Shown piece after piece: positions 4,292 through 57,622 of a stretch of DNA of 64,000 nt. The number at the start of each line of letters is the position of its first letter. Position 1 is the first letter of the stretch. Location of the stretch: NCBI GenBank assembly GCA_037501455.1, contig CM074856.1:101773001-101837000 (forward strand), written 5' to 3'. Source of the stretch: Lantana camara. Lineage: Eukaryota > Streptophyta > Magnoliopsida > Lamiales > Verbenaceae. The notes beneath the pieces were generated by a model that had not been told where the DNA came from, searched no databases, and was given only the letters and a program-made list of their open reading frames with translations. Made by a program: the position numbers and the translations under genes.

Positions 4292-4309
4292 GGACCTGTC
4301 CCCAGGTCC
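4292..4309 (-). other. Polypurine-proximal hairpin of A
   Basis: In the sense strand GGACCTG-GGGA-CAGGTCC forms a 7-bp stem with a GNRA-type tetraloop. The equivalent sits at the same place in C, D, G and H with compensating base changes. Confidence 0.75.
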
Positions 4310-4494: not shown

Positions 4495-4568
4495 GAAAGA
4501 ACCCCGTCTTTCGGGCAAGAAGGAGAGAACCCCATCCCTCAAACAACAATGAGAGAACCCCGTCTCTC
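4495..4568 (-). repeat. Hairpin array of A (3 clear units)
   Basis: Three hairpins with a 6-nt loop: 4495-4512 (GAAAGA/TCTTTC), 4523-4540 (GAGAGA/TCCCTC, a G-U pair in the sense strand) and 4551-4568 (GAGAGA/TCTCTC). A degenerate fourth lies near 4580-4600. The stems differ but remain complementary, and the loop stays ACCCCG/ACCCCA on the plus strand. This is the shortest of the five arrays. Confidence 0.8.
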
Positions 4569-13492: not shown

Positions 13493-13497
13493 ATTTC
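13493..13497. repeat. TSD of element C, left copy (ATTTC)
   Basis: Five bases before the C 3' LTR, repeated at 50244-50248 after its 5' LTR, 36.7 kb away. This joins the two C LTRs into one element despite the nested insertions. Confidence 0.92.
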
Positions 13498-16400
13498 TGT
13501 AACACCCCAAACGGTGGGGCATCACACCCCCGCACTATGACCCGACACGTGTACGAAATGGAGAGTCCGTACACGTACTAAGTCACAGCGAACGGGTGAC
13601 AGATGAAAAGCACACCCACTGGCTAGGCGGTATCTAACCCTGTACAGGTGAAAGAATGCAAAACATGACAACAGAAGCAATACAAAATGGCAACTTTCAA
13701 AAACTTAAATCAGCAATTATAAATTCATATATCCAGAAAGTGAAACAACATCAACCTAAACGGGTTCAACTAAACAAGGCAACCTGTCCTAGCCTGTCTC
13801 GAATAACTATACAACAAAACGGGTTCAACTGGCCCTAGAAACCTGTCCCGATCAAACATATAATCAAACGGGTTCGACTAATCCAAGTACCTGTCCTAAC
13901 CTGTCCCGAATTCTAAACATTTAAATCATAAATGCAACATGCACAAAACACATCTTATACAAAATTTACAAACATATTTCAAAACAAATTGCTTAAAAAA
14001 CTAAACGAACAGACACAAACATGACAGACATGACACACTGCCACCTAGCACGAACTCCAATGTGAACCCAAACCAAAACCTGCACACTAGAAACATAAAC
14101 GGGTTGGGGTCAATCCAAAGACTGAGCGAGGGGATAACACACGCACGCTATACATATATATAGGGCACAGCACAAGGTAGAAGCAATGTTCCTGAACCCA
14201 GGGGTTAGTTTTTGCACGCCAAAATATTTTTCCGTGATAGTATACTTATAGGGGCTTAAAATCAAACAAACAAATCTTAACTCAAACGTTCTTAAAACAT
14301 AAGTTCAGATTCATGCAGACTTAACACACATATCAGAGCATATCGTATTAGTTTAAAAGTATATCAATTTTTATCTTAATTTAAGAATCTACCCCCGTTT
14401 CATGAACTTATAACAGACGGACAGAAAGAACACACTTACTCATATCAGAACAAAACTCATAAAACAATCCCACCTGCACACCATTGGGGAAGAGAGGTGC
14501 CCCTCTCAACCCACCACAGAATGAAACATGTGAACCGGAGGATCCCGCCCGGTTCCTTCGACGGCCAGCCAAAATGCGCTCCGTCGGCATAAGAGAACTA
14601 AGTCTCCCGTTGGTGGAGAAGTGCACAGGGGTCGTAACCGGCGACCCCAATGGTCGTCCCGGGTCTCCCTTACCCACAATCTCTGGGGCCCATCACACAG
14701 ATAAACAGACATATATCGGAAACTTAACTTGCCACACACAGACAGACAGACATCTCTTATGCATATCGTGCTTATCATATCACATGTACATATCACACAC
14801 ACTGACCTCGGAATCATAATAGAACTGAAACAAAGCATACATAGGCTCATACATAGCGTTTCGTATTTTCAAATCAAATCATATGACAAAACTAGAAAAA
14901 TACGTACTTCGCACATATCTACATATATATAAGGCTTATAAACTGCATGTATTCGAAAACGAGCACGTTGTAATAGGGTATAACTATATCCTAACCTCAT
15001 CTGGCACTAAACACAGCCGAAGACACAACAAATGGTCCACCCCGGAACCTGCACGACTCACTTGTCACCACCCCGGGTGCACCTGTACCAACTGAACACA
15101 CAAACACAGACTCAGACTCCAAAACCAACCAAAAAGACGCACGGCCATGCTCACGGATACAAATGATGCAACATATGACCCATATTGATTCAATCAAGTC
15201 ATTCAGAGCATATTACAATCCAAAATACATATCAAAAGATGCATAGCTTATAAAATTCCTAACGTTAATTACATACAATAAATTAGGACATTAAGAATTC
15301 CATTCATATCAAGTACCAATTCTCGAATAAATAAACGCAATTTACATAACAATTTATATACAAATTATACATTGACAATTTTCACGATATTCTAACAATT
15401 AGCATACTTAAGCAATTCATTCAAATTAAATATAACTTAGCCTATCATAATTCATTTCTTATATTTCATAACATTTCATAATCAATTAGTTTTCTAAAAT
15501 TACACTAACACCCCTTAAACAAGAATTATTCTCAAATAAGTAGGCAAATAACGAGGCAATTAAATTCACTAAATCACGAATTAAGCTTTCATACAACATA
15601 ATATATTTTCATATATCATACAATTCAAAATTTTCATTTCATAGTTCATACAAGGCCGAAATTACAATTAAAACAATTAACGAAGATAAATACAACAACT
15701 TCAAAAATTCACATAAAATCAACCGGACATCCGATGACGAACGGAAACTGGCGTTGGACTCACCAAGACGAAAGGAACCCGCTGATCGAAAGTCACCAGA
15801 ATGCCGCCACCGTAGCCGGCCGAACCGCCACGTGCAGCCGCCGAACCACCACCTCCGATGGTCGGAAAATTCCCCGGAAGGACAAAAACATGCGTCTCGG
15901 CCTACTCAACAAAAGCCCTCAATCAATTTCAGAAAATACCAAACACGCCGGACTTCGTTGACGAAAAACCGAACTAAATTCCAAGGACGAAAACTGAAAT
16001 TAAACGCAAACCGTAAAACGAAAACGAAATCCGAACATACCGTTGGAAAGCCCGTAACGAGCCCTTCGAAAGCCCCTAGCGAAAACCTGAAAAAAGTCGC
16101 CGGAAAAATCGAACGCCGGTCCAGACCTGTCCACCGCCGCCGGCCGGTTCTTGAGCCACCACCACCACGAATAACTCAAACTCGTCGTCAGGAACAACCT
16201 TTGAAAAGGGATCACCACCAAAACCAGCCGAAAAAAGGCCGAACCGCCGCCTCAAAGTTCCGCCGATGCTTCTCGCTGGAAAACGCCATTTTCGGTCACT
16301 TTCTCGCCAAACCATTGCCGGAAATGAAATCAGGAGGTCGAAAATGATCGGAAACCATCAAGCCCCGTCGAAAAACGCCACTACAGTAGCGCCGCCGCCT

Positions 16401-17128
16401 GTCGCGATCTTCGGGCGGCGCGTGCGGCGCCGTCACAGCCCGGATGGCCGCGCCGCCAACGCCATACGCTGCGTCGGGGAGTCTTCTTACTGGGTCCGTG
16501 GCGCGTGTCTCGAGATCACCGCCGAAAACCGCCGCGAATGGGCGGCGAAGCGGCGGCTCCGCCACCCCCCCGCCTGTACATTTGAAAATCGGCGAAAAGG
16601 GCCACCTCCGGTTGTCGTCGGGCCATGATCTTGGTACGGTTGAGACCGCATCGTCGAGCTCATCGAAAAACACTATTAGTTCGTCGAAATCCGTCGAGAA
16701 ACGAGCAAGTTTGGATTGTATGTGAAATTACACCTTCGAGTGTGTGTGTACAGTGTTTGAATCGCTGGTGGGGGGGGAGAGAGAGCTGAAGCTGAGGTTA
16801 TGGCACGAATAACGATGAAGAAGATATTTATCCCAGTCCTCGCGTGAAGAAACGATTGGTAGAAAGGGCTAACGACGTCAGAATTGGGCAAACTTAGAGT
16901 CTACGGACTCGTTTCGCTGCCCTGAACGTAATAAAGGGGTCAAAGAGGTCGAAATCTCGATCGAACGAGGAATGACCGAAAAACCCCTAAAAAGAGAAAA
17001 TTGCAAACAAGCCCCTAAACTCTTAAAGAGTTCAAAATAGGGCCGTGCAAAGCATAAAATCACATAATTACACACATAAAAGGTTGAAACATGGCGTACC
17101 TTATTTATAGGATGAGCGGGATGTTACA
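13498..17128 (-). repeat. Element C 3' LTR (3631 bp)
   Basis: Left LTR. It contains three tandem CGGGTTCRACT...CCTGTCC repeats (13757-13915), the R-region hairpin at 14110-14125 with one sense-strand G-U pair, a GC-rich block (16080-16620) and a GA-rich run near 16770-16786 (CTCTCT in the sense strand). Apparent frames at 15754-16347 and neighbours fall in GC-rich LTR sequence and are not called. Confidence 0.92.
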
Positions 17129-17145
17129 AACTTCCCTCCTTTAAA
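17129..17145 (-). promoter_or_regulatory. Polypurine tract of C
   Basis: The sense reading is TTTAAAGGAGGGAAGTT, directly before the LTR start TGTAACATCCC. Confidence 0.82.
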
Positions 17146-17165
17146 AGGACCTGTCCTCAGGTCCT
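17146..17165 (-). other. Polypurine-proximal hairpin of C
   Basis: The sense reading AGGACCTG-AGGA-CAGGTCCT forms an 8-bp stem. It is identical in form to D (57603-57622) and compensated relative to H. Confidence 0.75.
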
Positions 17166-17416: not shown

Positions 17417-17780
17417 GAGAGAATCCCATCTCTCAACACTCAAGTGAGAGCACCCCGTCTCTCGACACACAAAAGAGAAAACCCCGTTCCTCAGCACACA
17501 AGGGAGAGAACCCCGTCTCTCCGGCACAGAATTGAGAGAACCCCATCTCTCAACCACATAATCGAGAGAGCCCCGTCTCTCAACCTAAGTCTGGCAGATT
17601 CCACACCTCCCAGACATTCTAGTTTGAGAAAATCCAGCACTTCTCAAACCCCTAAATTCGAAAGAATCCAACATCTTCGAATATCTAGCTCCAAGAGAAT
17701 CCAACATCTCTCGCACACGAATAGGGAGAATCCCGCTTCTCCCTAACACATAAATAGAGAGAGATCTCAACAACTCTCTA
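17417..17780 (-). repeat. Hairpin array of C (12 units)
   Basis: Twelve consecutive hairpins at: 17417-17434, 17446-17463, 17475-17492, 17503-17522, 17532-17553, 17564-17581, 17589-17615, 17622-17649, 17656-17682, 17694-17711, 17722-17745 and 17755-17780. Stems differ (for example GAGAGA, GGAGAGA, TTGAGAGA, GTCTGG, GTTTGAGAA, TAGGGAGAA) yet each is matched by its own complement. The first six have a CGGGGT-type 6-nt loop in the sense strand; most of the rest have a longer TGTTGGAT-type loop. Unit 3 (GAGAAA/TTCCTC) pairs fully only on the sense strand through G-U. This is the clearest array in the window. Confidence 0.85.
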
Positions 17781-18221
17781 GCACACAAGTCCACTTACTC
17801 AGCAATCAAACAAACACACATTGGAGCAAACACTGGACGCAAAACATGTGATGTATCGGTGTCCCTGGAGTATAGACTCGTCATCCATGCTCAACTCAAG
17901 GGGGATATCGCGATGGAATCTCTGTAAAATAAGATTACAATATATGTATATGCATGAAAGGGGTAATGAGCAATCAAGAACATTAAACATAGAGGCACAA
18001 ATAATTTACACAAGCATGCAATCCAATCAGCTTGGCAAGTGTTCACAAACAATAGAAAACTTTAAGTTACGAAATTAAATCAATTAGCCACGTTATTACA
18101 CACGTTGTCACACACGTCAAACAAAATAAAATATAATTACTTATGCAATGCATGTGTGCAAATGCCATGAATGTTTAATGTACCGTTGACCGTGGCAATG
18201 AAGTCGTGGTTGACAATTTCT

Positions 18222-20437: not shown

Positions 20438-21564
20438 TGTTGGGAATAGTGCCCTGAAAATTCAATTTGTTGAATTAATTAAAACTGAATTTGCAACAAG
20501 TTGTGAGTATTTCACATATTAATAATTAATAACGTGTGATGGTATTCTTATATGAAATGTGTTTCGTAGGAAAAGACTTTGAATACCGAAATCACGTGTT
20601 ATTAAAGTTCTAGTCGGTAAGATAAGAATATGTTCTTATCAAGACTATAACGTGGTTATATAAGATGATTAGTCTTTCGTCATAGGGAATGGTGATTTCA
20701 ATTATAACACGTTGATGATTTTCAATAAGATTGGAAACATCGAACTGGACCAATGAGATTATTTATTTTATACTGCTATCTAAAATAAATAAAATCTCAG
20801 GAAGCATTGTACTCTTAATCCTGATAATATTTCGGCTTTAGGCATGTAGTGTTAGTTACTGTAACATACTCGAAGTGAGGTCTCGGTAACGGGTGGCCAA
20901 AATACTTTGTATGATTCGGTGACAACATGAAATGCGTTAAAGAATTATATTAATCAAGGAATCTGTGGCCTTGCTGGAAGGTAAGAGATATCCTTGAAAT
21001 AGATTTGTAAAAGTTCGAATTAAGACTTTGGCCAAAGCACTTCGCGTGATAACGTCACCGAAGTTGTATGATGAATGTGTTTCACATACAGAGAATTTGA
21101 ACTTAAGGCGAATCAATAAATTTCAAATTGGAGATGAAAAATAAATGATAGTAGTTATAATTTATTTTTCATGGATATCTACACGGAGGAGTAAAATGCG
21201 AAATTATTCTAGATCGAGAAATTCGTGAATAATTTAATTAATTTTAGAGTGCAACAATATTTATATAGTGGAATTAAATATTGTTAAACGGTAATTAATT
21301 ATTGTCATGAGATAATAATATATTAATCCGTTTGGAGCTAAAATTAATTAGTCCTGCAGGTCCCCCTGCAAGCCCCAAATCAAAAACCCAAAGAGAAATT
21401 ATTAAAAGGAGAAAGAGAAGTGAATTTTTCAAAGTGTTTGAAAATAGCCAAGGGATTTATTTTAAGAAAATAAATCAATTTCCAAAGAGTTGGAAATGCC
21501 CGAAATTTTATTTTGGAGAAAATAAAATTTAAAATTTAAAAAAAAAAAAAAAAAAAAAGGTGCT

Positions 21565-21690
21565 GACGTGACAGCTGACGTGGCATGCCACGTCAGCAAA
21601 TGGGCCCAGGTGGCGCTGACTGGGCAGCCGCGTGGCATGCCACGTGTGAGACACGTGGACATCCCAGATCGCGCCACGTCAGCGCGGAAA
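21565..21690 (+). promoter_or_regulatory. ACGT-core palindrome cluster (possible bZIP sites)
   Basis: TGACGTGG, CCACGTCA, CCACGTGT and ACACGTGG occur within about 120 bp, including a perfect 24-bp palindrome at 21574-21597 centred on GGCATGCC. Plant bZIP factors bind ACGT cores, so this may be a stress-responsive enhancer about 0.4-0.5 kb upstream of the TATA box. It is repeated in the 3' LTR at about 28684-28806 (palindrome 28697-28720). Confidence 0.55.
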
Positions 21691-22069
21691 CAACGGTCCA
21701 GATTTGATCGGACCGGGTCGGTCAAACGGGTCAGGGTGTCGGGTCAACGGGCCGGGTGTCGGATAGGGTCGGACCGGGTCCGGTTCCGGGCCGGACCGAC
21801 CCGGACACGTGGCCGCTTCAGAAGAGGCCACGTCAGCCCTAAGCCCTAGCCGAGAGTGAAAGACACGCGCCGCCTTGTGGCGGCGCGTGAGGGCGCGTCC
21901 GGCAGCGGATTGGCGCGTTCTCGGCGGCGTTGGACTCGTGGTGACAAGGGCTACGACGTGGTCACCTCGGTTTTCGTGTCCAAGTTGGCTACGCAAGTGG
22001 GGGTGTGAAATGACCATTTTACCCTTGCTTTTGTATCCAAAATGACCAAAATGCCCTCGGTTTTTCCCC

Positions 22070-22077
22070 TATAAATA
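22070..22077 (+). promoter_or_regulatory. TATA box of copia I 5' LTR
   Basis: TATAAATA in the context CCCCTATAAATAGGGG. It is repeated at 29193-29200 in the 3' LTR. Transcription would start about 25-35 bases downstream. Confidence 0.8.
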
Positions 22078-22165
22078 GGGGCCTTGGGTCCTCATTTCTC
22101 CCATTCAGTTTTGGGAGAGGTTTTGGCTAGAGAATAGCTTTGAAACCATATCCCATTTCTCCTAG

Positions 22166-22230
22166 TTAATTTCGATTTATTTCGAAATTAATTTTAATTA
22201 GGTGTTTATATATAACGCCTAATTTCGGGA
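22166..22230 (+). other. Structured leader hairpins in the copia LTR
   Basis: Hairpin 1 (22166-22191) is TTAATTTCG/CGAAATTAA with an 8-nt loop. Hairpin 2 follows as AATTAGGTGTT pairing with AACGCCTAATT through one G-U. In the 3' LTR, hairpin 1 (29289-29314) reads TTAATTCCG/CGGAATTAA, a paired change that preserves the stem. Confidence 0.65.
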
Positions 22231-22660
22231 GAATAAACCCTGAAAAGGGTTTTTAGTTTAAATTTTATTTTCTCTAAGTATTTAGAGAAATACTTTCGGA
22301 GCCCACGCTCCGAGGGTGTCCCTGGGGTCATTGCAGGGAAGCTCTGCCGGTCTCACGAGTGGGCAAGGAGCTGGAAAAATGCCGTTAGATAGCCATGTTT
22401 GCAGTACGGTAATAGTTTTCAGTTATTTTATTTTAAGCATGATAAATTATGTGCTCTTAAGTGTTAATTGCATGTTAGATATTTATCTGCTTAAGTGATT
22501 TAAAATTTATTATCAATTGCATGTATATACTTGAGTAGATCCGGCTAAGTCTTCCGCTTTGTATTAAAATGTTTTAGAAATATTTTAATACTTGTATTAT
22601 AATAAAAATTTTAAAATGTGGTCCCGGACTGCTACTGTTCTGGGCCCGCATCCCAGCAAC

Positions 22661-22672
22661 TGGTATCAGAGC
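22661..22672 (+). promoter_or_regulatory. Primer-binding site of copia I (tRNA-iMet)
   Basis: TGGTATCAGAGC two bases after the 5' LTR. Confidence 0.94.
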
Positions 22673-24229
22673 CGTGCTCTAGATATATACATGCATTGAT
22701 ATGATGCATGTGATGCATAATTTTAAATCTGATACTGTGCACGTAAATTCTGTCAAAGAAGACTGGTTTTTAAGTGGGACCGTTTGTGACCCCTCCAGTG
22801 TTTCTGGGAATTTACGTGGAATGGTAATTTTTTGGGAATCGATTTCAATAATCTTCCTGGTTAATTACCGAATCAGTAAACATGATTTAAATTATGAGAT
22901 AATTTATTTATAACATGTTTACTTTATGCCATTTTTTTAAGCATGATAATTATGTGATAATTATAATAGCATGCTTAATTGATTTAATTTATGGCATATT
23001 TATTTTGTGTCATTTAAAATTTTAAGCATGATAATTATGTGATAATTATATGATAACATGCTTAATTATTTTATTTTATGGCATGATCATGATAATATGA
23101 GATATTATGTTATTTACAATTATGCGTATTTTATTTAATGTGATTAAATAAATAATGTTTCATAGAGATTGAACGAGATGCATAATTGGACTAATATTTT
23201 TCGGCCTAATTAATAAATTGTTATTATTGCCTTAAAATATTATTATTGGGATTTTAAATATGATTTAGTAATCCCAGTGGGAGGGTATTAATTAGATTAA
23301 ATTACTTCCAACAGTAAGACGCCAAAAGTGATTATTAAATAATCAACAGATAATCCACACCTTTTAAAAAATTCAAGTGGGAGCGAGATGAAAAGAGTTG
23401 GATTCTCACGGCCTCCATTACCCGTCTATAGTATAGTGGATGTATACTACTCCCTTCGGCGGGTATATATTCGCGGTATACAAGATTAGACTTCTACGGA
23501 TAGAATGAAATACGGGGAAGTCAGCTCGACCACGCCTCCGTGGAGTGTCTTGACCTACTCGTACGGACTTCTAGGTAATGGCACACACTTGACTAAGTAA
23601 TGTATTAACCTCCCTTCGGAGCTATGTTACATTTACTTAGAGGCCAAGGGTTGACATGGTGGATTGATATTGTTTGGTAAGAGTTACCTAGATGACATGT
23701 TAATTAAGAATAGTTCTTGCTTTTCTAAGCGGTTTTCGACCTCGCCTCCGGGGAGTCAACTGCAGTTAGTTAAGTCACCATTGCGTAAACCAAAATGCTT
23801 ACGTGGATTTCATTTATTGGTTGGACGTAGAAGAAAGTGAAATACATAATCATAACTTGCATTTATTTATTTATTTCAGTTTTATAATTACGATCTCTCT
23901 TAGCCCACTCCAAACTGTATGTCTATAAGGAAATAGGCTAGTAAGGGTTCAACTACGCTGACTAAGTAATGAATCTTGACATCGTATTGAGACACGAAAG
24001 TTTACGTACTCACTGAACCTTATCCGAAAATTTCGGAAGCTACAACCAGTCAGGATTAGAAAGACGTTTATTCTAAATAGATCAAGTGTGATGATCTGGC
24101 TAGTCTTATATCCTGATATCTGTTTTAAATGTTCTTGAGCATCAAACACATGAGATGTCTACTGATAAGAACATGTGTTGAAGACAGAGTCGTACGTAGG
24201 TACGAGCCATGAAAACGGTTGTCAGTTAA
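22673..24229 (+). mobile_element. Copia I leader and decayed early gag region
   Basis: AT-rich leader (22673-23330) containing repeated AAGCATGATAATTATGTGAT-like segments, then sequence with many stops in all frames. No Gag motif is clear before about 24230. Confidence 0.6.
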
Positions 24230-24640
24230 AGATGTTTGAAGGATCACTGTTTCATAATCATATTATGAATATGATAACTAATCTGAATGAGATTGAAAGC
24301 CTCTGTGCTTAAAGAGACAATCTTAACAGATAGGATACGATCCTATACTCTCTGCCTAAGTCGTTTGAACGTTCAAGATTATTTTAAATAATTTTTTTAC
24401 AAAACCAATGAACGACCTCAATGTGGCAGAAAGGGTGATATAGACTAAGGGAAAAGTTCTCTTTAATCAGACATCAATATCCACGGGCTAGAAAGCCAGT
24501 AAGTGGAAGAAAGAAAAGGAAAAGTTCCCAATCGAAGGTTCAGAAATAGAAAGTCAAATTCGACAATGGAAAAGTGTTTCTATTTCGGTGGTAACGGGTA
24601 TTGGAAAAGGAAATTATCCAAAATACTTAGTCTGTCTATT
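24230..24640 (+). pseudogene. Copia gag remnant with ruined zinc knuckle
   Basis: Around 24250-24400, broken frames resemble the C-terminal half of copia Gag (NLNEIES...). At about 24568-24630 the frame reads GKCFYFGGNGYWKRKLSKIL, clearly a former CX2CX4HX4C knuckle: the first Cys remains, the second is Phe, the His is Tyr and the last Cys is Leu. Nucleic-acid binding by this product would be lost. Confidence 0.75.
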
Positions 24641-24710
24641 TGTTACGCCGTTTAGATAAGATATAAAGATATCTTACTCGTTGAAAAATATGTTTAGTTG
24701 GAAATTCACC

Positions 24711-24776
24711 GGAATCCTGGTATGTGAATTTGAGATCAACTAATCATATTTGCAAGTTGTTGCGAAGATTCAAACC
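24711..24776 (+). pseudogene. Copia protease remnant, catalytic Asp lost
   Basis: The frame reads SPESWYVNLRSTNHICKLL. Copia proteases have a D-S-G-A-T motif at this position followed by NH and a Cys; here the DSGA part is NLRS, so the catalytic aspartate is gone while the flanking W, TNH and C remain. Confidence 0.75.
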
Positions 24777-25179
24777 AACCAGAAAGGTTGAAAAACGGCT
24801 AACACATAACTACTGCTCGGGGATAATACAAGTGTAATTGTATTAGCAGTAAAGACTATAAAGTCGTATTTTGGCAAAAGGGTTTTAATATTATACGTGC
24901 CATATAAACAGAAATTTAATTTCAGTGGGTTATTTAATAACTAATAGTTTAATTGTTCGTTTTGAACAAAAGTTTACCACTAAGCAAAATAAAAGGTTTA
25001 TTTGCTCTGGCACAATAAAAGATGGTCTTTTATACCTTAATGAAAACCCGAATTCAAGTTTAACAGTAAGAAGTTTGACTTACCATCTAAGAAGAAAAAC
25101 TTCTTCGTGGCACCTTTCTATTGGTCAATTGAATCTGAATAGGATCCAATGACTGATTGTTGAGTCCTATTGACTTGAA

Positions 25180-25520
25180 AATAGTATCAATCTGCGAATC
25201 CTATTTAGAAGGTTAAAATGACCAAGAAACCTTTTTGAGACAAAAGGTATTTAAGCCATGAAGTTGCTTGTGTCAGTTCATACGGATATGTGATCCTATG
25301 ATTATTCAAGCAAGAGGAAGTTTTGGATATTTCATCATTCGTTTAAATGATTACTCTAGATAATATATGTGTATTTGATGAGACTTAAGTCTGTAATTGT
25401 TGAAGAGTTCAAAGAATATAAGACTTAAGTCAAAGAATCAAATTAGAAAACATATCAAGGCACTTCGATTAGGTCGAAGTAGTGATAAGTATCTAAGTTC
25501 AGAGTTAAACAGAATTTCTC
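25180..25520 (+). pseudogene. Copia integrase core remnant
   Basis: Broken frames contain VHTDM at about 25275-25290 (first catalytic Asp region), YVYLM near 25365-25380 and IKALRLGRSSDKYLSSE near 25455-25507, the last replacing the usual S-D-R-G-G-E-Y integrase motif. Stops and frameshifts separate them. It is not functional. Confidence 0.75.
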
Positions 25521-26289
25521 AAATGAGATTGGATCTCAACTATATATATGAGATACGTCTTAGCAAAGATGTATTGCAGAAAGGAGAAATAGAACTCTGA
25601 TAATGATGGTAAGATTCATGAAGAGTCATGCTACCCTATGAATTTCGTTTTGGGGTCTTGCACACAAAACGACAAACCTAGTTCTATCTAAGTCAGTTCC
25701 TAAAACACTGATGGATCTGTAGCTAGGGTGAAAACCCTGTATCTTTTATCTTCGGATTTAAGGTAGCCTGGTCCACGAGTTAAGGATGGATCCTGACAAG
25801 TTAGAATAAAGAACAAAGGTTTACTTGTTCTAAGGTTATCCTAAGAAAAACAAGAGGTGGTATATTTTGTAATTTGAGAAATCACAAAAGATGTTTGTGA
25901 ATATTTCAAAGATAATTACATTGATAACCGCAAAGGGTAGAAGCAAAGTAGTGTTAAAAGAAATAACAGTATTAGATACTGATTTCCATAAACCCGTGAT
26001 GACTGAAAATATATTGGATACATGTGATGTACCAAATACAACATGTGATGTAGAGACGTGTACACGAGAGCATCATTATAGTGGGAGGATTGTCAGGACA
26101 CCTGACAAGATACCTAAGATTAACCCAAGTGGTTGAATCTAACATATCTGATCCCATCACGTGTAATGAAGCTGTAAAAGATATAGACGCTGACCGCTTG
26201 GTCAATATCCATGAAATCTAAGTTAGAATATCTGTATTCTAACAAAGTCTTGAACTTGTAGAGGCGCCTGAAGGCATTAAACCCTATTA

Positions 26290-27150: not shown

Positions 27151-27159
27151 AGTAGTGAA

Positions 27160-27540: not shown

Positions 27541-27556
27541 AAATTGAATTTAGGGC

Positions 27557-27567
27557 AAGTGGGAGAT
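27557..27567 (+). promoter_or_regulatory. Polypurine tract of copia I
   Basis: AAGTGGGAGAT directly before the 3' LTR start TGTTGGG, typical of plant copia elements. Confidence 0.9.
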
Positions 27568-29781: not shown

Positions 29782-29786
29782 GATGG
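29782..29786. repeat. TSD of copia I, right copy (GATGG)
   Basis: Identical to 20433-20437. Confidence 0.94.
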
Positions 29787-32057: not shown

Positions 32058-32074
32058 AACTTCCCCCCTTAAGA
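32058..32074 (-). promoter_or_regulatory. Polypurine tract of H, unit 1
   Basis: The sense reading is CTTAAGGGGGGAAGTT before TGTGACGCCCC. Confidence 0.82.
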
Positions 32075-32093
32075 GAACCTGGTCCCCAGGTTC
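32075..32093 (-). other. Polypurine-proximal hairpin of H, unit 1
   Basis: GAACCTGG-GGA-CCAGGTTC in the sense strand. Compared with G (GGACCTGG/CCAGGTCC) the second base pair changes from G-C to A-T on both arms. A second copy is at 38492-38510. Confidence 0.75.
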
Positions 32094-32383
32094 CACTGCA
32101 AAAATGTAGATCCTCGTGTAGTAGTGCTCCAACTCTTCTCCGGAACTCACGTAAGAACATAACTCTAATGGTGAGGCTTACTCCTGTCATCTACACCGAA
32201 CCTCCTTTAGGATGTCTTGTTACCGTCGAGGTCCGTGCGAGTACTTGATCCGCTAGTTGTTCGAACTCGATCGGTCATTCCCATGATCGGATAGCTGCAA
32301 CTGCACCCAACCTCGATGTCGTCTCAGATGCACCACTTGCTACCCGTAGTCAGATCAGCGCGTAACGCAACCACAACAAACAA

Positions 32384-32722
32384 GAGAGAATCCCATCTCC
32401 CAGTACGTAAGTGAGAGAGCCCCGTCCCTCAGCACCCACAAGAGAGAGAACCCCGTCTCTCGAGCACACACAAAAGAGAGAACCCCGTCTCTCAAGCACA
32501 TAATTGAGAGAACCCCATCTCTCAACCTAAGTCGGACAGATTCCAGCATCTGCCAACATTCTAGTTTGAGAAAATCCAGCATTCCTCAAACTCTTAGATT
32601 CAAGAGAATCCAGCATCTCCGAATATCTAAATACAAGAGAATCCAACATCTCTTGCGCACAAAACTTAGAAAGATTCCAACATCTTTCTACCACATAAAT
32701 AGAGAGTATCCTACATCTCTCC
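32384..32722 (-). repeat. Hairpin array of H, unit 1 (11 units)
   Basis: Hairpins at 32384-32401, 32413-32430, 32444-32461, 32476-32493, 32504-32525, 32535-32554, 32564-32591, 32598-32624, 32634-32655, 32667-32690 and 32701-32722. The sense-strand loop is CGGGGT or similar in the first five; longer loops follow. Units 1, 2, 6 and 7 contain positions that pair only as G-U on the sense strand. Unit 10 is a perfect 9-bp stem TAGAAAGAT/ATCTTTCTA. Confidence 0.83.
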
Positions 32723-34339
32723 AACACGTAAAAAAAAAGGAACCTAAGGTCTCTCTTGCACATAAATCCACTGATCAGTTATTCATACATACACACATTA
32801 TAGTAACACTTGACGAAAAGTATGCGATGCATGTTTGGTGTACCTTATACAACTGATATCGGTGTCCCTTGAGTATAGATTCAACGCTCATACCTCAACT
32901 CAAGGGGGATATCGCGATGGAATCCCTATAAAACAAGGTTACAGTATGTATGTATGTTGTATGGGAAGTTAGTGAGCAATCAAGAGAGTTTTAAATCACA
33001 TAGGCATGAATGGTTCACATAAATACATAACTCATTCATTCCAGCACGGTTCATAACAAGTAGAAATTTCAAGTTACAATTACTAGATCAGGTATCCAAG
33101 TTATCACAATTAAAATAGCAATAGCCATCACCCACATCAAGCAAAACAAGGTAAGAGTATTTAACAATGCATGTATGCAAATGCCATGAATGCTTGGCGT
33201 ACCTTTAACCGAAGCGTAACAATCTTTACAAGAAAGTCGAGATGAAGCAGTAGGAGTTGATTAAGCCGGTAATGATGCAACCTTCGTCATCTGAACTTCT
33301 TTGTCTTGAGTCTTCTCATAAAGTGGTAACTCAGCAAAGCTCGTTTATCACCAAACCCCTTACTAGACCGTAATCCTTGCTCAACTAGAATCATCCTCAG
33401 TTTCTCCTAAGAATTCTCATTTATGTGTTAAATCTTAGTCTGCTCATCTTCAAGGAGTTGTCCATGATTCATTTGTCAATTAGATATTTACCTCAGAGTT
33501 TCGTTGGATGATCGTGGTGCTAAGTACTTCCCAAAGCAATCCATGGTATATAATGCTAAAACTTGAATAAAGTCTTTCAGCATCTAAGTGTTATATTCCC
33601 GCATCAACAATGTCTTCCATCTCATCTTAGAGAAACACCCAAAGAGCTAACAACCAATCTTATCTTGTCGTTCGTTAACTCTAAATGGCACCAAAACCTT
33701 CAACACTCACCGATGGTTTGTAGCTCGTTGCTTAAGTAACATGGTTACCTATCCACATCCCTTGAACTTGATCGGATCGTATTTGATCGGATTCTTCTAC
33801 ATTAACTCGTTTCCATCAACAAGGTGACTACTTCCGAATAAACGAATCATCAAGGTGAAAATTCATCAAACTCCATCTTTCAATTGACTTTAAGATAGTA
33901 AGTCAACATAGCAAATCTCAGTCCTTCAACTCTGAACCTTTTCATGACCATTGATCTTGGTAAAGAATCCTTTCATCTTCGAATTATGGCGTGTTTCCGT
34001 TGTAGTACCAATAGGTAGTGTTGACGGAGGGAAATCTTAGTGTTGACTCATAGGGTACCCTGAAATTCGAACACTAAATTCGATGCATGGGAGTTAAAGT
34101 GCAAATGAAATGTAACACGTATATCACGTAAATGCAACAATTAGTTGTAATTTATAAAGCACATAAAATAAGATGTGGCATAATCAAAGTCACAATGTGC
34201 ACACAATCATATAATCACAAAACAATTCATGCTGAAGGGTCAAAATATCAAGTCAAATAAATGCAATGCGCAGTTATTCCTATGCCGTACGACCTAGACA
34301 GACTCAACACGACTCAAGAGCTCGGTTTTGCAACCTAGA

Positions 34340-38474: not shown

Positions 38475-40122
38475 ACCTTCCCCCCTTAAGAGAACCTGGT
38501 CCCCAGGTTCCACTACAAAAATGTAGATCCTCGTGTAGTAGTGCTCCAACTCTTCTCCGGAACTCACGTAAGAACATAACTCTAATGGTGAGGCTTACTC
38601 CTGTCATCTACACCGAACCTCCTTTAGGATGTCTTGTTATCGTCGAGGTCCGTGCGAGTACTTGATCCGCTAGTTGTTCGAACTCGATCGGTCATTCCCA
38701 TGATCGGATAGCTGCAACTGCACCCAACCTCGATGTCGTCTCAGATGCACCACTTGCTACCCGTAGTCAGATCAGCGCGTAACGCAACCACAACAAACAA
38801 GAGAGAATCCCATCTCCCAGTACGTCAGTGAGAGAGCCCCGTCCCTCAGCACCCACAAGAGAGAGAACCCCGTCTCTCGAGCACACACAAAAGAGAGAAC
38901 CCCGTCTCTCAAGCACATAATTGAGAGAACCCCGTCTCTCAACCTAAGTCGGACAGATTCCAGCATCTGCCAACATTCTAGTTTGAGAAAATCCAGCATT
39001 CCTCAAACTCTTAGATTCAAGAGAATCCAACATCTCCGAATATCTAAATACAAGAGAATCCAACATCTCTTGCGCACAAAACTTAGAAAGATTCCAACAT
39101 CTTTCTACCACATAAATAGAGAGTATCCTACATCTCTCCAACACGTAAAAAAAAGGGAACCTAAGGTCTCTCTTGCACATAAATCCACTGATCAGTTATT
39201 CATACATACACACATTATAGTAACACTTGACGAAAAGTATGCGATGCATGTTTGGTGTACCTTATACAACTGATATCGGTGTCCCTTGAGTATAGATTCA
39301 ACGCTCATACCTCAACTCAAGGGGGATATCGCGATGGAATCCCTATAAAACAAGGTTACAGTATGTATGTATGTTGTATGGGAAGTTAGTGAGCAATCAA
39401 GAGAGTTTTAAATCACATAGGCATGAATGGTTCACATAAATACATAACTCATTCATTCCAGCACGGTTCATAACAAGTAGAAATTTCAAGTTACAATTAC
39501 TAGATCAGGTATCCAAGTTATCACAATTAAAATAGCAATAGCCATCACCCAAATCAAGCAAAACAAGGTAAGAGTATTTAACAATGCATGTATGCAAATG
39601 CCATGAATGCTTGGCGTACCTTTAACCGAAGCGTAACAATCTTTACAAGAAAGTCGAGATGAAGCAGTAGGAGTTGATTAAGCCGGTAATGATGCAACCT
39701 TCGTCATCTGAACTTCTTTGTCTTGAGTCTTCTCATAAAGTGGTAACTCAGCAAAGCTCGTTTATCACCAAACCCCTTACTAGACCGTAATCCTTGCTCA
39801 ACTAGAATCATCCTCAGTTTCTCCCAAGAATTCTCATTTATGTGTTAAATCTTAGTCTGCTCATCTTCAAGGAGTTGTCCATGATTCATTTGTCAATTAG
39901 ATATTTACCTCAGAGTTTCGTTGGATGATCGTGGTGCTAAGTACTTCCCAAAGCAATCCATGGTATATAATTCTAAAACTTGAATAAAGTCTTTCAGCAT
40001 CTAACTGTTATATTCCCGCATCAACAATGTCTTCCATCTCATCTTAGAGAAACACCCAAAGAGCTAACAACCAATCTTGTCTTGTCGTTCGTTAACTCTA
40101 AATGGCACCAAAACCTTCAACC
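38475..40122 (-). mobile_element. Element H internal domain 2, truncated
   Basis: Repeats internal 1 with few differences from its polypurine tract up to about 40120 (matching 33703 of internal 1), then changes within two bases to G LTR sequence at 40123. It lacks the primer-binding half and the third LTR expected beyond it. It includes its own polypurine-proximal hairpin at 38492-38510. Confidence 0.87.
38801..39139 (-). repeat. Hairpin array of H, unit 2
   Basis: Copy of 32384-32722 offset by 6417 bp. Differences include a loop change CCCCAT to CCCCGT (plus strand) in unit 5 and CCAGCATC to CCAACATC in unit 8; both lie in loops and leave the stems intact. Confidence 0.83.
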
Positions 40123-40872: not shown

Positions 40873-40902
40873 ACTCTCCCCCCCCCCCCCCCCCCCCTAA
40901 AA
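40873..40902 (-). promoter_or_regulatory. Polypurine tract of G with a 20-base G run
   Basis: Plus-strand positions 40878-40897 are 20 consecutive C, so the sense strand has 20 G followed by AGAGT before the LTR. The run is unusually long and may reflect slippage or a sequencing or assembly uncertainty. Confidence 0.75.
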
Positions 40903-40921
40903 GGACCTGGTCCCCAGGTCC
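40903..40921 (-). other. Polypurine-proximal hairpin of G
   Basis: GGACCTGG-GGA-CCAGGTCC in the sense strand, an 8-bp stem. Confidence 0.75.
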
Positions 40922-40952: not shown

Positions 40953-41081
40953 AAGAGAACCCCGTCTCTTGAACATGAATGAAAGAACCCCGTCTTTCAC
41001 AAGAAATGAGAAAACCCCGTTTCTCAGCAAGGAGTGAGAGAGCCCCGTCTCTCAACAGAAAAGGAGAGAGCCCCGTCTCTC
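40953..41081 (-). repeat. Hairpin array of G (5 units)
   Basis: 40953-40970 AAGAGA/TCTCTT, 40980-40999 TGAAAGA/TCTTTCA, 41007-41026 TGAGAAA/TTTCTCA, 41036-41053 GAGAGA/TCTCTC, 41064-41081 GAGAGA/TCTCTC. All have the 6-nt ACCCCG/GCCCCG loop on the plus strand. Three different stems with a constant loop in neighbouring units is direct evidence of compensatory change. The long-loop class seen in C, D and H is absent. Confidence 0.85.
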
Positions 41082-46054: not shown

Positions 46055-46066
46055 GCTCTGATACCA
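46055..46066 (-). promoter_or_regulatory. Primer-binding site of C (tRNA-iMet)
   Basis: The minus strand reads TGGTATCAGAGC, seven bases from the 5' LTR. Confidence 0.93.
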
Positions 46067-46073
46067 CTCAAGA

Positions 46074-49000
46074 TGTAACACCCCAACCGGTGGGGCATCA
46101 CACCCCCGCACTATGACCCGACACGTGTACGAAATGGAGAGTCCGTACACGTACTAAGTCACAGCGAACGGGTGACGGACGAAAAACACACCCACTGGCT
46201 AGGCGGTATCTAACCCTGTACAGGTGAAAGAATGCAAAACATGACAGCGGAAGCAATACAAAATGGCAACTTTCAAAAACTTAAATCAGCAATCATAAAT
46301 TCATATATCTAGAAAGTGAAACAACATCAACCTAAACGGGTTCAACTAAACAAGGCAACCTGTCCTAGCCTGTCCCGAATAACTATACAACAAAACGGGT
46401 TCAACTGGCCCTAGAAACCTGTCCCGATCAAACATATAATCAAACGGGTTCGACTAATCCAAGTACCTGTCCTAACCTGTCCCGAATTCTAAACATTTAA
46501 ATCATAAATGCAACCTGCACAAAATACATCTTATACAAAATTTACAAACATATTTCAAAACAAATTGCTTAACAAACTAAACGAACAGACACAAACATGA
46601 CATACATGACACACTGCCGCCTAGCACGAACTCCAATGCGAACACAAACCAAAACCTGCACACTAGAAACATAAACGGGGAGGGGTCAGTCCAAAGACTG
46701 AGCGAGGGGTTAACACACGCACGCTATACATATATATAGGGCACAACACAAGGTAAAAGCAATGTTCGTGAACCCAGGGGTTAGTTTTTGTACGCCAAAA
46801 TATTTTCCAGTGATAGTATACTTATAGGGGCTTAAAATCAAACAAACAAATCTTAACTCCAACGTTCTTAAAACATAAGTTCAGATTCATGCAGACTTAA
46901 CACACATATCAGAGCATATCGTATTAGTTTAAAAGTATATCAATTTTTATCTTAATTTAAGAATCTACCCCCGTTTCACGAACTTATAACAGACGGACAG
47001 ACAGAACACACTTACTCATATCAGAACAAAACTCATAAAACAATCCCACCTGCACACCATTGGGGAAGAGAGGTGCCCCTCTCAACCCACCACAGAACGA
47101 AACATGTGAACCAGAGGACCCCGCCCGGTTCCTTCGACGGCCAGCCAAAATGCGCTCCGTCGGCATAGGAGAACTAAGTCTCCCGTCCCGGGTCTCCCTT
47201 ACCCACAATCTCCGGGGCCCATCACACAGATAAACAGACATATATCGGAAACTTAACTTGCCACACACAGACAGACATACATCTCTCATGCATATCGTGC
47301 TTATCATATCACACGTACATATCACACACACTGACCTTGGAATCATAACAGAACTGAAACAAAGCATACATAGGCTCATACATAGCGTTTCGTATTTTCA
47401 AATCAAATCATATGACAAAACCAGCAAAATACGTACTTCGCACATATCTACATATACATAAGGCTTATAAACCGCATGCATTCGAAAACGAGCACGTTGC
47501 AATAGGGTATAACTATATCCTAACCTCACCTGGCACTAAACACAGCCGAAGACACAGCAAATGGTCCACCCCGGAACCTGCACGACTCACTTGTCACCAC
47601 CCCGGGTGCACCTGTACCAACTGAACACACAAACACAGACTCAGACTCCAAAACCAACCAAAAAGACACACGGCCATGCTCACGGATACAAATGATGCAA
47701 CATATGACCCATATTGATTCAATCAAGTCATTCAGAGCATATTACAATCCATAATACATATCAAAAGATGCATAGCTTATAAAATTCCTAACGTTAATTA
47801 CATACATAAATTAGGACATTAAGAATTCCATTCATATCAAGTACCAATTCTCGAATAAATAAACGCAATTTACATAACAATTTATATACAAATTATACAT
47901 TGATAATTTTCACGATATTCTAACAATTAGCATACTTAAGCAATTCATTCAAATTAAATATAACTTAGCCTATCATAATTCATTTCTTATATTTCATAAC
48001 ATTTCATAATCAATTAGTTTTCTAATATTACACTAACACCCCTTAAACAAGAATTATTCTCAAATAAGTAGGCAAATAACGAGGCAATTAAATTCACTAA
48101 ATCACGAATTAAGCTTTCATACAACATAATATATTTTCATATATCATACAATTCACAATTTCCATTTCATAGTTCATACAAGGCCGAAATTACAATTAAA
48201 ACAATTAACGAAGATAAATACAACAACTTCAAAAATTCACATAAAATCAACCGGACATCCGATTGACGAACGGAAAGTGGCGTTGGACTCACCACGACAA
48301 AAGGAATCCGCTGACCGAAAGTCACCGGAATGCCGCCACCGTAGCCGGCCAAACCGCCACGTGCAGCCGTCGAACCACCACCTCCGGTGGTCGGAAAATT
48401 CCCCGGAAGGACAGAAACGTGCGTCTCGGCCTACTCAACAAAAGCCCTCAATCAATTTCAGAAAATACCAAACACGTCGGACTTCGTTGACGAAAAACTG
48501 AACTAAATTCCAAGGACGAAAACTGAAATTAAATGCAAACCGTAAAATGAAAACGAAATCCGAACATACCGTTGGAAAGCCCGTAACGAGCCCTTCGAAA
48601 GCCCCTAGTCAAAACCCGGAAAAAGTCACCGAAAAATCGAACCGCCGGTCCAGACCGGTCCGCCGCCGGCCGGTTCTTGAGCCACCACCACCACGAATAA
48701 CTCGAACTCGCCGTCAGGAACAACCTTTGAAAAGGGATCACCACCAAAATCGGCCGAAAAAAGGCCGAACCGCTGCCTCAAAGTTCCGCCGCTGCTTCTC
48801 GCCGGAAAACACCATTTCCGGTCACTTTCTCGCCAAACCACTGCCGGAAATGAACTAAGGAGGTCAAAAATGATCGGAAACCATCAAGCCCCGTCGAAAA
48901 ATACCGCCGGAAGGCGGCGCAACTCGCCGCTACAGTAGCGCCGCCGCATGTCGCGATCTTTGGGCGGCGCGTGCGGCGCCGTCACGGCCCGGATGGCCAC

Positions 49001-50243
49001 GCCGCCAACGCCATACGCTGCATCGGGGAGTCTTCCTACTGGGTCCGTAGCGCGTGTCTCGAGATCGACGCCGAAAAACACCGCGAATGGGCGGCGAAGC
49101 TGCGGCTCCGCCACCTCCCGCCTGTGCGTCTAAAAATCGGCGAAAAAGGCCACCTCCGGTTGTCGTCGGGCCATGATCTTGGTACGGTTGAGACCGCGTC
49201 GTCGAGCTCGTCGAAAAGCACTATTGGTTCATCGAAATCCATCGAGAAACGAGCAAGTTTGGATTGTAAGTGAAATTATACCTTCGAGTGTGTGTGTACA
49301 GTGTTTGAATCGCTGGAGGGGGGAGAGAGCTGGCGCGTGTCTCGAGATCGCCGCCGAAAACCGCCGCGAATGGGCGGCGAAGCGACGGCTCCGCCACCCC
49401 CCGCCTGTGCGTCTGAAAATCGGCGAAAAGAGCCGCCTCCGGTTGTCGTCGGGCCATGATCTTGGTACGGTTGAGACCGTGTCGTCGAGCTCATCGAAAA
49501 GGACTATTGGTTCATCGAAATCCGTCGAGAAACGAGCAAGTTTGGATTATATGTGAAATTACACCTTCGAGTGTGTGTGTACAGTGTTTGAATCGCTGGA
49601 GGGGGGGGAGAGAGCTGGCGCGTGTCTCGAGATCGCCGCCGGAAACCGCCGCGAATGGGCGGCGAAGCGGCGGCTCCGCCACCCCCCGCCTGTACATCTT
49701 AAAATCGGTGAAAAGGGCTGCCTCCGGTTGTCGTCGGGCCATGATCTTGGTACGGTTGAGACCGCGTCGTCGAGCTCGTCGAAAAGCACTATTGGTTCAT
49801 CGAAATCCGTCGAGAAACGAGCAAGTTTGGATTGTATGTGAAATTACACCTTCGAGTGTGTGTGTACAGTGTTTGAATCGCTGGAGGGGGGGAGAGAGAG
49901 CTGAAGTTGAGGTTATGGCACGAATAACAATGAAGAAGATATTTATCCCGGTCCTCGCGCGAAGAAACGATTGGTAGAAAGGGCTAACGACGTCAGAATT
50001 GGGCAAACTTAGAGTCTATGGACTCGTTTCGCTGCCCTGAACGTAATAAAGGGGTCAAAGAGGTCGAAATCTCAATCGAACGAGGAATGACCGAAAAACC
50101 CCTAAAAAGAGAAAATTACAAACAAGCCCCTAAACTCTTAAAGAGTTCAAAATAGGGCCGTGCAAAGCACAAAATCACATAATTACACACATAAAAGGTT
50201 GAAACATGGCGTACCTTATTTATAGGACGAGCGGGATGTTACA
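46074..50243 (-). repeat. Element C 5' LTR (4170 bp)
   Basis: Right LTR of C. R-region hairpin at 46686-46701. Putative sense-strand intron signals: donor AGGTGAGG at about 47530 and acceptor TGCAGG at about 46656. The GC-rich part contains the triplication at 49050-49903. Frames such as 49456-49977 and 49173-49556 come from the tandem GC-rich units and are not genes. Confidence 0.92.
49050..49903. repeat. Tandem triplication (about 285-bp unit) in the C 5' LTR
   Basis: Units start at 49050, 49333 and 49618, each with GCGCGTGTCTCGAGATCG and ending at a GA-rich AGAGAGCTG; the 3' LTR has one (from about 16500). The unit spans the GC-rich block and the CT-rich (sense) tract, so it may triple part of the promoter region. 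Confidence 0.88.
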
Positions 50244-56989: not shown

Positions 56990-57332
56990 TAGAGAGTTGT
57001 TGAGATCTCTCTATTTGCGTGTTAGGGAGATGTGGGATTCTCCCTATTTATGTGATAGAAAGATGTTGGATTCTTTCTAAATTATGTGAGCAAGAGATAG
57101 TGGATTCTCTTGGAGTTAGATGTTTGGGAGATGTTGGATTCTCTCGAATTTAGGGGTTTGAGAAATGCTGGATTTTCTCAAACTAGAATGTTTGGAAGAT
57201 GTGGAAGTCTGCCAGACTTAGGTTGAGAGACGGGGCTCTCTCGGTTACGTGGTTGAGAGACGGGGTTCTCTCAATTCTGTGTCTGAGGGACGGGGTTCTC
57301 TCTTTTGATGTGCTGAGAGATGGGATTCTCTC
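56990..57332 (+). repeat. Hairpin array of D (11 units, plus strand)
   Basis: Hairpins at 56990-57013, 57023-57046, 57056-57079, 57091-57112, 57123-57148, 57156-57183, 57190-57217, 57223-57244, 57253-57274, 57285-57302 and 57315-57332. The first five or six have a TGTTGGAT-type loop, the last four a CGGGGT/TGGGAT loop. Irregular pairs (in units 5, 7, 8 and 10) are G-U on the plus strand, the sense strand here, as expected for RNA. Order and loop classes mirror C and H. Confidence 0.85.
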
Positions 57333-57602: not shown

Positions 57603-57622
57603 AGGACCTGAGGACAGGTCCT
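57603..57622 (+). other. Polypurine-proximal hairpin of D
   Basis: AGGACCTG-AGGA-CAGGTCCT. Confidence 0.75.

What the first reader, a model, noticed from the sequence alone, without database searches (positions are those of the whole stretch)
17417..17780. Tandem array of 12 hairpins with variable, self-complementary stems and constant loops
Seen directly: twelve consecutive hairpins at about 30-nt spacing. Neighbouring stems differ (GAGAGA, GGAGAGA, TTGAGAGA, GTCTGG, GTTTGAGAA, TAGGGAGAA, TAGAGAG) but each is matched by its own complement, while loops keep CGGGGT-type or TGTTGGAT-type sequence. Related arrays occur at the same place in A (4495), D (56990), G (40953) and H (32384, 38801), with 3 to 12 units. 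Ordinary tandem duplication would not change both arms together, so pairing seems selected. Tandem repeats in the 3' untranslated region are known from Ogre-type elements; a compensating hairpin array is not something I know to be described. Possible roles are a Gag-binding or packaging platform, dimerisation by loop contacts, RNA stability or localisation, or capture of a helper's machinery.
Basis: partly seen in the sequence, partly recalled or inferred. Interest (0 to 1): 0.88.

Follow-up and report, generated by a model that had tools for sequence, protein, structure and literature searches.

The report
Plant retroelement hairpin array for packaging
The 3' ends of a very abundant family of plant jumping genes carry a row of 3 to 12 short units, predicted to fold as RNA hairpins, whose two arms change together; the row is likely a docking strip for the Gag coat protein, which would let even copies without a gag gene get packaged and copied.

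Summary
At 17417-17779 (sense strand minus) there are 12 hairpins; arrays of 3 to 11 lie at the same place in the window's other four elements, 5' of a separate hairpin, the polypurine tract and the 3'LTR. Pairing is maintained: 36 of 40 six-pair cores are fully paired (20.8 after shuffling arms). In three orthologous arrays, one-sided changes gave G-U in 16 columns and A-C in none. Genome-wide, a core changed on both arms outnumbers either single change (1307 against 286 and 137; 932 against 195 and 171). New here: a sister subfamily carries an open Ty3-type gag under purifying selection, with the same array about 0.5 kb after it in 8 of 8 loci fetched. The window's gag-less elements match it only 3' of gag; the two most divergent match only in the array and polypurine-tract hairpin. 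Best explanation: a multivalent Gag-binding packaging platform, predicted to act in cis for gag-bearing elements and to be exploited by gag-less ones. Structure is well supported by sequence; Gag binding is inferred and untested. Against: energy folding does not favour every hairpin and favours the antisense strand, and wobble bias is slight or absent at two of the sites counted.

The parts
17417..17779 (-). Hairpin array of element B, 12 units (the finding)
17758..17779 (-). unit 1, AGAGAG/CTCTCT, loop TTGTTGAGAT
17722..17745 (-). unit 2, TAGGGAGA/TCTCCCTA; H has TGGAGAG/CTCTCTA (one double change, one G-U)
17692..17713 (-). unit 3, CGAGAGA/TCTCTTG (one G-U)
17656..17682 (-). unit 4, ATTCGAAGA/TCTTTCGAAT with a bulge
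17622..17649 (-). unit 5, GTTTGAGAAG/TTTCTCAAAC
17589..17615 (-). unit 6, GTCTGGGAG/CTGCCAGAC with one mismatch
17562..17583 (-). unit 7, loop CGGGGC
17532..17553 (-). unit 8, loop TGGGGT
17503..17522 (-). unit 9, GGAGAGA/TCTCTCC, loop CGGGGT
17475..17492 (-). unit 10, GAGGAA/TTTCTC, loop CGGGGT
17446..17463 (-). unit 11, loop CGGGGT, closing pair broken (A-G)
17417..17434 (-). unit 12, GAGAGA/TCTCTC, loop TGGGAT
17146..17165 (-). polypurine-tract hairpin AGGACCTG-AGGA-CAGGTCCT
17130..17142 (-). polypurine tract of B (predicted from position and sequence)
13498..17128 (-). 3'LTR of B; target site duplication ATTTC at 13493-13497 and 50244-50248
46055..46066 (-). primer binding site of B, TGGTATCAGAGC
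46074..50243 (-). 5'LTR of B
17854..17909 (-). conserved larger stem-loop upstream of the array in B (GATATC...CCTTGAGT/ACTC.AGGG...)
4495..4568 (-). array of element A, 3 units
4292..4309 (-). polypurine-tract hairpin of A
40953..41081 (-). array of element G, 5 units
40903..40921 (-). polypurine-tract hairpin of G
32384..32723 (-). array of element H, first copy, 11 units
32074..32094 (-). polypurine-tract hairpin of H, compensated form GAACCTG/CAGGTTC
38801..39140 (-). array of element H, second copy, 11 units
56990..57332 (+). array of element D, 11 units
57603..57622 (+). polypurine-tract hairpin of D

Best explanation
The array is a row of predicted RNA hairpins in the 3' untranslated region of a gag-less, apparently Ty3-type LTR retrotransposon family, and it likely works as a multivalent docking platform for Gag that selects the element's RNA for packaging and reverse transcription. 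Shown by sequence: arms vary but stay complementary on the sense strand, while loops keep a GG core (GGGG or GGA) in both main unit types. Shown: the array sits 5' of a separate conserved hairpin, the polypurine tract and the 3'LTR. Shown: a sister subfamily encodes a Ty3-type Gag and carries the same array shortly after gag. Shown: the window has no match to that gag but its elements keep the array. Inferred: the Gag zinc knuckles bind the loop guanosines, and several hairpins in a row give avidity. Inferred: gag-bearing copies use the array in cis, gag-less copies use it to take Gag in trans, and pol must come from a third, autonomous element. Inferred: the polypurine-tract hairpin is a separate part, likely helping to set the plus-strand primer.
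For: (1) Covariation. Type-1 units: 99.2% of cells paired, 3 of 6 pairs with double changes; type-2 units: 95.0%, 6 of 8 pairs, 21 double-changed cells; 0 of 500 shuffles reached the paired percentage, the covariation score or the double-changed cells in either set. RNAalifold, given no structure, recovers the array hairpins shared by at least two of B, D, H. (2) Genome-wide exact counts: unchanged core GAGAGA-CGGGGT-TCTCTC 20,669. Site 4: both arms changed 1307, G-U single 286, A-C single 137. Site 2: 932, 195, 171. Reversed-pattern controls were 0 in each. Independence would predict about 2 doubles at each site (my arithmetic). (3) The strand: in B/D/H 16 pair columns show WC in one element and G-U in another, none A-C; 10 to 0 if columns where D, the structure's source, is or shares the wobble are dropped. 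On a 30-copy tree WC>GU 32, WC>AC 13; internal branches 8 to 1, terminal 24 to 12, as expected if selection acts in active lineages and stops after insertion. (4) Gag link: three gag frames scanned hit Retrotrans_gag (1e-17 to 2e-17) and Ty3_capsid (7e-11 to 8e-14), median dN/dS 0.24 over 28 pairs; array in 8 of 8 loci fetched, polypurine-tract hairpin in 7 of 8. (5) Gag-bearing L111 matches H, D and B from 10-12 bases past its gag frame and not in gag, and A and G only in array and polypurine-tract hairpin (blastn, E<=1e-3). (6) Retroviral zinc knuckles bind exposed guanosines in hairpin loops (PMC7599994, passages); MMTV Gag needs unpaired GGAG purines (PMC8096270, passages).
Against: No binding, probing or transcript data. 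Energy folding is weak: 29 of 40 local stems exceed probability 0.5 with span<=30 (23 of 40 unrestricted); the antisense strand does slightly better (32 and 23 of 40), has the more extreme z-score in all six arrays, and arrays A and G show no sense-strand excess at all (z 0.5 and 0.4). For type-1 units the covariation score with the partner slid by 2 columns is nearly as high (0.208 against 0.213), though with no double changes. The covariation term of the B/D/H fold is small (-3.8 of -181.5 kcal/mol). G-U over A-C is slight at site 2 (195 to 171), and in the polypurine-tract hairpin sample it is 0 to 2 of 100. Copy counts are not independent events. In the 30-copy set overall transition direction in stems is balanced (41 to 38). 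MoMuLV NC did not bind isolated hairpins, and replacing HIV-1's GGAG loop hardly changed packaging (PMC7599994, passages). Ty1's known packaging sequences are at its 5' end. B, D and H share much of the post-gag region, so only A and G isolate the array, and a short motif near gag's end may also be shared (seen by eye). Pol-bearing members were not sought.
Confidence: 0.55

Rival explanations
1. The array is selected RNA structure, but for reverse transcription or RNA dimerisation rather than packaging: for example pausing the polymerase or shielding the polypurine tract from RNase H, or letting two genomes pair through exchangeable GAGAGA/TCTCTC arms.
For: The array lies about 30 to 290 nt from the polypurine-tract hairpin in all five window elements. 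Arms are similar enough that folding predicts cross-pairing between units. Ty1 dimerisation uses kissing loops and palindromes (PMC5454406, passages).
Against: Loops are not self-complementary, so simple kissing is unlikely. Loop GG is constant while arms vary, which points to a loop-binding partner. The distance to the tract varies about tenfold, which argues against a precise primer role.
Confidence: 0.2
2. The two arms match because of a mutational process, not selection: template switching during DNA replication or reverse transcription turns imperfect inverted repeats into perfect ones.
For: Such quasi-palindrome correction is established (recalled). It would also give changes in both arms at once.
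Against: It is blind to strand and leaves perfect pairs, yet surviving imperfections lean to G-U on the sense strand (16 to 0; 58 to 1 of the first 100 places at a type-2 pair; weaker or absent at other sites). At that type-2 pair G-U is the commonest state. Stems change less than linkers (0.84 against 0.68 identical columns).
Confidence: 0.08
3. The hairpins serve RNA stability, export, localisation or evasion of silencing through a host RNA-binding protein, with no role for Gag.
For: Constant loop, multivalent array and 3'UTR position fit any RNA-binding protein.
Against: It does not explain why the array follows gag and is what the most divergent gag-less elements still share with gag-bearing ones, though a host factor could be shared too.
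Confidence: 0.15
4. Ordinary 3'UTR tandem repeats of Ogre/Tat type with chance inverted symmetry.
For: Tandem repeats in this position are common in plant Ty3/gypsy elements (PMC7004042, PMC11963269, passages).
Against: Those of Ogre/Tat are described as hypervariable; here order and unit-specific stems are conserved between B, D and H and over 30 G-family loci, and covariation is strong.
Confidence: 0.02

Closest known systems
[quoted passage not shown]
   Same: The sister elements have an open gag frame with no room for pol between gag and the 3'LTR. TR-GAGs with a single ORF for GAG are described and can transpose (PMC8704663, passages).
   Different: No hairpin array is mentioned in the passages I read; the defining paper (PMC4350172) was not held. 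The window's elements have no match to that gag.
BARE1/BARE2 of barley
   Same: A Gag-less element is packaged in another's particles, with conserved dimerisation and packaging signals (PMC3735527, passages).
   Different: Ty1/copia (recalled); no tandem 3' hairpin array in the passages read.
Dispersed packaging signals of single-stranded RNA viruses (MS2, hepatitis B virus and others)
   Same: Several stem-loops with a shared loop recognition motif and varying sequence around it (PMC6281560, passages; RGAG loops of hepatitis B virus, abstract start in listing).
   Different: Those are spread over the genome; here they are a compact tandem row in the 3'UTR of a retroelement.
3'UTR tandem repeats of Ogre and Retand elements
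   Same: Tandem array between coding region and 3'LTR.
   Different: Hypervariable (Ogre) or family-specific (Retand), and not reported as paired; the words hairpin and secondary structure did not occur in either paper's main text.
Sirevirus polypurine-tract inverted repeat and repeated motifs
   Same: Palindromic repeated boxes and an inverted repeat at the polypurine tract (PMC2829016, passages).
   Different: Ty1/copia; one arm of the inverted repeat lies in the 3'LTR, and the boxes sit in the LTR (some near env).

Membership tests
LTR retrotransposon | paired LTRs with 5-bp target site duplication | tested here: met
   A: ATCCC/ATCCC, B: ATTTC/ATTTC; LTR pairs for A, B, D, G (3'LTR partial), H. 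Duplications were not established for D, G, H.
LTR retrotransposon | primer binding site after the 5'LTR and polypurine tract before the 3'LTR | tested here: met
   TGGTATCAGAGC in A, B, D, G, H; purine run before each 3'LTR start
Ty3/gypsy | Ty3-type Gag/Pol | tested here: inconclusive
   Gag of sister elements hits Retrotrans_gag and Ty3_capsid. The window has no match to that gag; 8 short frames from A, B, D, G gave no Pfam hit at cut-off, one weak DUF1759 and one weak AEP-like in A. Pol not searched genome-wide.
TR-GAG | single gag ORF between LTRs, no pol | tested here: inconclusive
   Sister loci: gag stop to 3'LTR about 1.1 kb in the 4 loci where both were seen; 5' side not fully checked. 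Window elements: not met, no gag match
LARD (large retrotransposon derivative) | long LTRs and a conserved non-coding interior (definition recalled) | tested here: inconclusive
   LTRs about 2.6-4.2 kb, interiors about 1.6-3.4 kb, no coding domain found in the frames scanned
Ogre/Tat hypervariable 3'UTR repeats | repeats hypervariable between elements | tested here: not met
   unit order and stems conserved in B, D, H and in 30 G-family loci
Packaging-signal arrays | shared loop motif with variable complementary stems | tested here: met
Packaging-signal arrays | binding by capsid or Gag protein | not testable with these tools
   no binding data
Any Rfam family | match at gathering score | tested here: not met
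   0 matches in the window

The most novel reading that the evidence does not exclude
A plant genome hosts a three-layer parasite chain held together by one RNA module: a tandem, multivalent 3' hairpin strip recruits Gag made by gag-only elements, themselves dependent on pol from full elements. Gag-less elements that share with them little besides this strip, the polypurine-tract hairpin and LTR ends ride on that Gag. The strip would be a new class of retroelement packaging signal: 3', modular, variable in unit number, and present in more than twenty thousand units.
Probability: 0.4. Interest if true: 0.9.

Novelty: new variant of a known kind. Interest (0 to 1): 0.8.

Why it matters
[quoted passage not shown] Here a defined, repeated RNA unit (20,669 exact copies of one core form alone) and a matching Gag lie in the same genome, so a direct binding test is possible. 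The unit can also serve as a marker to find helper, gag-only and gag-less members in other plants.

Tried and rejected
Coding in either strand: H's arrays lie in a 168-aa antisense frame, but unit spacing is not a constant multiple of three, no frame of 130 aa or more covers the arrays of B or D in that listing, and Pfam gives nothing at cut-off for the H frame. G-quadruplex of GGGG loops: A has three loops only, type-2 loops have GG only; not pursued. DNA-level palindrome for a dimeric DNA-binding protein: argued against by the strand-specific wobble. Raw minimum-energy evidence: mixed, reported as such. Searches outside the genome: viral contigs had 0 matches for three patterns; genome contigs gave three scattered bacterial matches, taken as chance and not followed. 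Homologues of the 183-aa L104 frame in the large protein set: 17 candidates, none at E<=0.001; a frame cut short can miss longer relatives there. Literature: ten paper searches listed no paper that I recognised, from title and abstract start, as describing a compensating hairpin array in an LTR element; subscription papers are mostly not held.

Rows dropped: H2 (near-copy of H1) from the 40-unit counts; the one unit each of B and D that the loop pattern missed is not in those counts either; 37 units used to choose loci dropped; in that call anchors were not filtered for pairing, so its 159 units include some that are not true units (782 WC, 59 G-U, 16 A-C, 97 other cells). The first-100 tallies were counted by eye from the listed rows.

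Full report
What is there. The window is a nest of plant LTR retroelements. Primer binding sites place A, B, G and H on the minus strand and D on the plus strand. A and B are flanked by 5-bp target site duplications, ATCCC and ATTTC. In sense orientation each of the five elements ends its interior with the hairpin array, then about 30 nt (G) to 290 nt (H) of spacer, then a perfect or near-perfect hairpin GGACCTG...CAGGTCC (GAACCTG...CAGGTTC in H), then the polypurine tract and the 3'LTR. The reported interval holds 12 hairpins; A has 3, G 5, D 11, H 11 and 11.

Is pairing maintained? Forty units (A, B, D, G, H1; H2 left out as a near-copy) were anchored on their loops. Of 240 core cells, 224 are Watson-Crick, 12 G-U, 0 A-C, 4 other. 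Shuffling right arms gives 177 Watson-Crick and 22 A-C on average; 36 of 40 units are fully paired against a shuffled mean of 20.8, maximum 27. The structure counter agrees for both loop types; for type-1 units the score with the partner slid by two columns is almost as high (0.208 against 0.213) but has no double changes, as expected of alternating GA/TC arms. The alignment folder, given no structure, finds the array hairpins shared by at least two of B, D and H. On my structure the counter finds 5 pairs with changes on both sides, 3 in the array and 2 in the polypurine-tract hairpin; that hairpin also has 3 cells counted as unpaired, where the alignment is off by one base. Two unit models have their strong hits only inside the six arrays on the sense strand.

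Which strand, and selection or mutation? From a Watson-Crick pair, a transition on one side gives G-U or A-C with equal chance if strand does not matter. In B/D/H, 16 columns show G-U and none A-C. The structure was drawn from D, so columns where D itself wobbles are biased; without them it is 10 to 0. Outside stems the two transition classes are balanced, 79 to 72, inside stems 15 to 3, Fisher p=0.013. On a tree of 30 copies, G-U-making changes outnumber A-C-making ones 32 to 13, 8 to 1 on internal branches and 24 to 12 on terminal ones, although the overall direction of transitions in stems is balanced there, 41 to 38. That is the pattern of selection in replicating lineages and decay after insertion. 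A mutational origin of paired arms does not predict it. B, D and H are identical in 0.84 of stem, 0.74 of loop and 0.68 of linker columns, 0.49 in the region between array and 3'LTR.

Genome scale. The genome holding the window has 1.27 Gb. The core GAGAGA-CGGGGT-TCTCTC occurs 20,669 times. Changing one arm at site 4 gives 137 (A-C) or 286 (G-U), changing both gives 1307. At site 2 the numbers are 171, 195 and 932. Reversed patterns occur 0 times in each search. At a type-2 pair, the first 100 of 4013 places are 25 A-U, 16 G-C, 58 G-U and 1 A-C. For the polypurine-tract hairpin, the first 100 of 5367 are 76 G-C, 22 A-U, 2 A-C and 0 G-U. These are copies, not events. The G-U excess is thus strong at one site, twofold at one, slight at one, and absent in the hairpin sample. 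In 30 G-family loci the compensated unit AAGAGA/TCTCTT is seen in 29, GAAAGA/TCTTTC in 26 and GAGAAA/TTTCTC in 8; single broken or wobble changes occur in L039, L040, L045, L052 and L053.

The gag link. Following one array-bearing locus (L104) upstream showed an open frame whose relatives number 25,811 first-look candidates, of which 150 were scored and 151 matches reported. Seven loci with frames open as found (276-296 aa in the fetched pieces) and one broken locus were fetched. Three of the frames were scanned and all three hit Retrotrans_gag and Ty3_capsid. Two CCHC knuckles are seen in 6 of 7 and one in the seventh, by pattern; Pfam's knuckle model was below cut-off in L104 and silent in the three scanned. 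Median pairwise dN/dS is 0.24 over 28 pairs of 8 frames. All 8 loci carry array units about 0.5 kb 3' of gag (in the broken one, at the same place); L110 shows only 4 units and no polypurine-tract hairpin, the other 7 have the hairpin. In the 4 loci where the gag stop and the 3'LTR start were both seen, they are about 1.1 kb apart, too short for pol. The loci were chosen mostly for open frames, so this is not a random sample. The window has no match to this gag. A gag-bearing copy matches H, D and B from 10-12 bases past its gag frame onward, and A and G only in the array and the polypurine-tract hairpin; by eye a short motif near gag's end also recurs in A, B, D and G. Among seven gag-bearing copies mean pairwise identity is 0.933 in gag, 0.855 between gag and array, 0.896 in the array, 0.792 between array and hairpin, and 0.979 in hairpin plus tract.

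How it likely works. Shown by sequence: complementary arms, constant loop GG, sense-strand wobble bias, 3' position, shared by gag-bearing and gag-less relatives. Inferred: Gag zinc knuckles bind loop guanosines, as retroviral knuckles do (PMC7599994; MMTV purine loop, PMC8096270), and a row of hairpins gives avidity, as dispersed packaging signals do in other viruses (PMC6281560). The same review tells that MoMuLV NC did not bind isolated hairpins and that replacing HIV-1's GGAG loop did not much affect packaging, so the analogy is not proof. Gag-less elements would then be packaged in trans, as BARE2 is by BARE1 (PMC3735527). I hold this at 0.55; selected RNA structure of some kind I hold at about 0.9.

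Weak points. Energy models do not make every local hairpin the winner: 29 of 40 with short span, 23 of 40 without; the antisense strand scores as well or better, and A and G show no sense-strand excess stability. No transcript, probing or binding data were at hand. Pol-bearing members were not sought. The host plant is unnamed and no other plant genome could be searched.

Novelty. 3'UTR tandem repeats, gag-only elements and gag-less passengers are each known. A compensating, order-conserved hairpin array shared by gag-bearing and gag-less elements did not appear in the ten paper searches made (listed in Tried and rejected), and no Rfam family matches the window. I file it as a new variant of a known kind: a retroelement packaging-type RNA structure in an unusual place and form.

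Noticed in passing
17854-17909 (-), 56834-56892 (+), 32855-32913 (-): A larger, nearly invariant stem-loop (GATATCcCCCTTGAGT...ACTC.AGGGacaccGATATC) lies upstream of the array in B, D and H.
   Followed up: partly
52223-61636 and 18595-40121: D and H look like tandem LTR-interior-LTR-interior forms; array places about 6 kb apart in the same direction recur in the genome (for example C1:110764653, 110770730, 110776802).
   Followed up: no
20438-29789 (+): A nested element with near-identical LTRs, its own TGGTATCAGAGC site and decayed, copia-like frames (my reading; Pfam found nothing in the two scanned); no strong array hit inside it.
   Followed up: partly
49050-49903: Threefold tandem of a GC-rich 285-bp unit inside the 5'LTR of B; apparently one such unit in the 3'LTR.
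   Followed up: no
40878-40897: G's polypurine tract contains a run of 20 G on the sense strand.
   Followed up: no
4740-4800, 18170-18200, 41270-41310, 56530-56560: A motif close to CGGTGAACGGTACAT (sense) recurs in A, B, D and G, near where the match to gag-bearing copies begins in B and D; meaning unknown.
   Followed up: no
32350-32856 and 38767-39273 (+): Antisense 168-aa frames run through H's arrays; likely from low stop content.
   Followed up: partly
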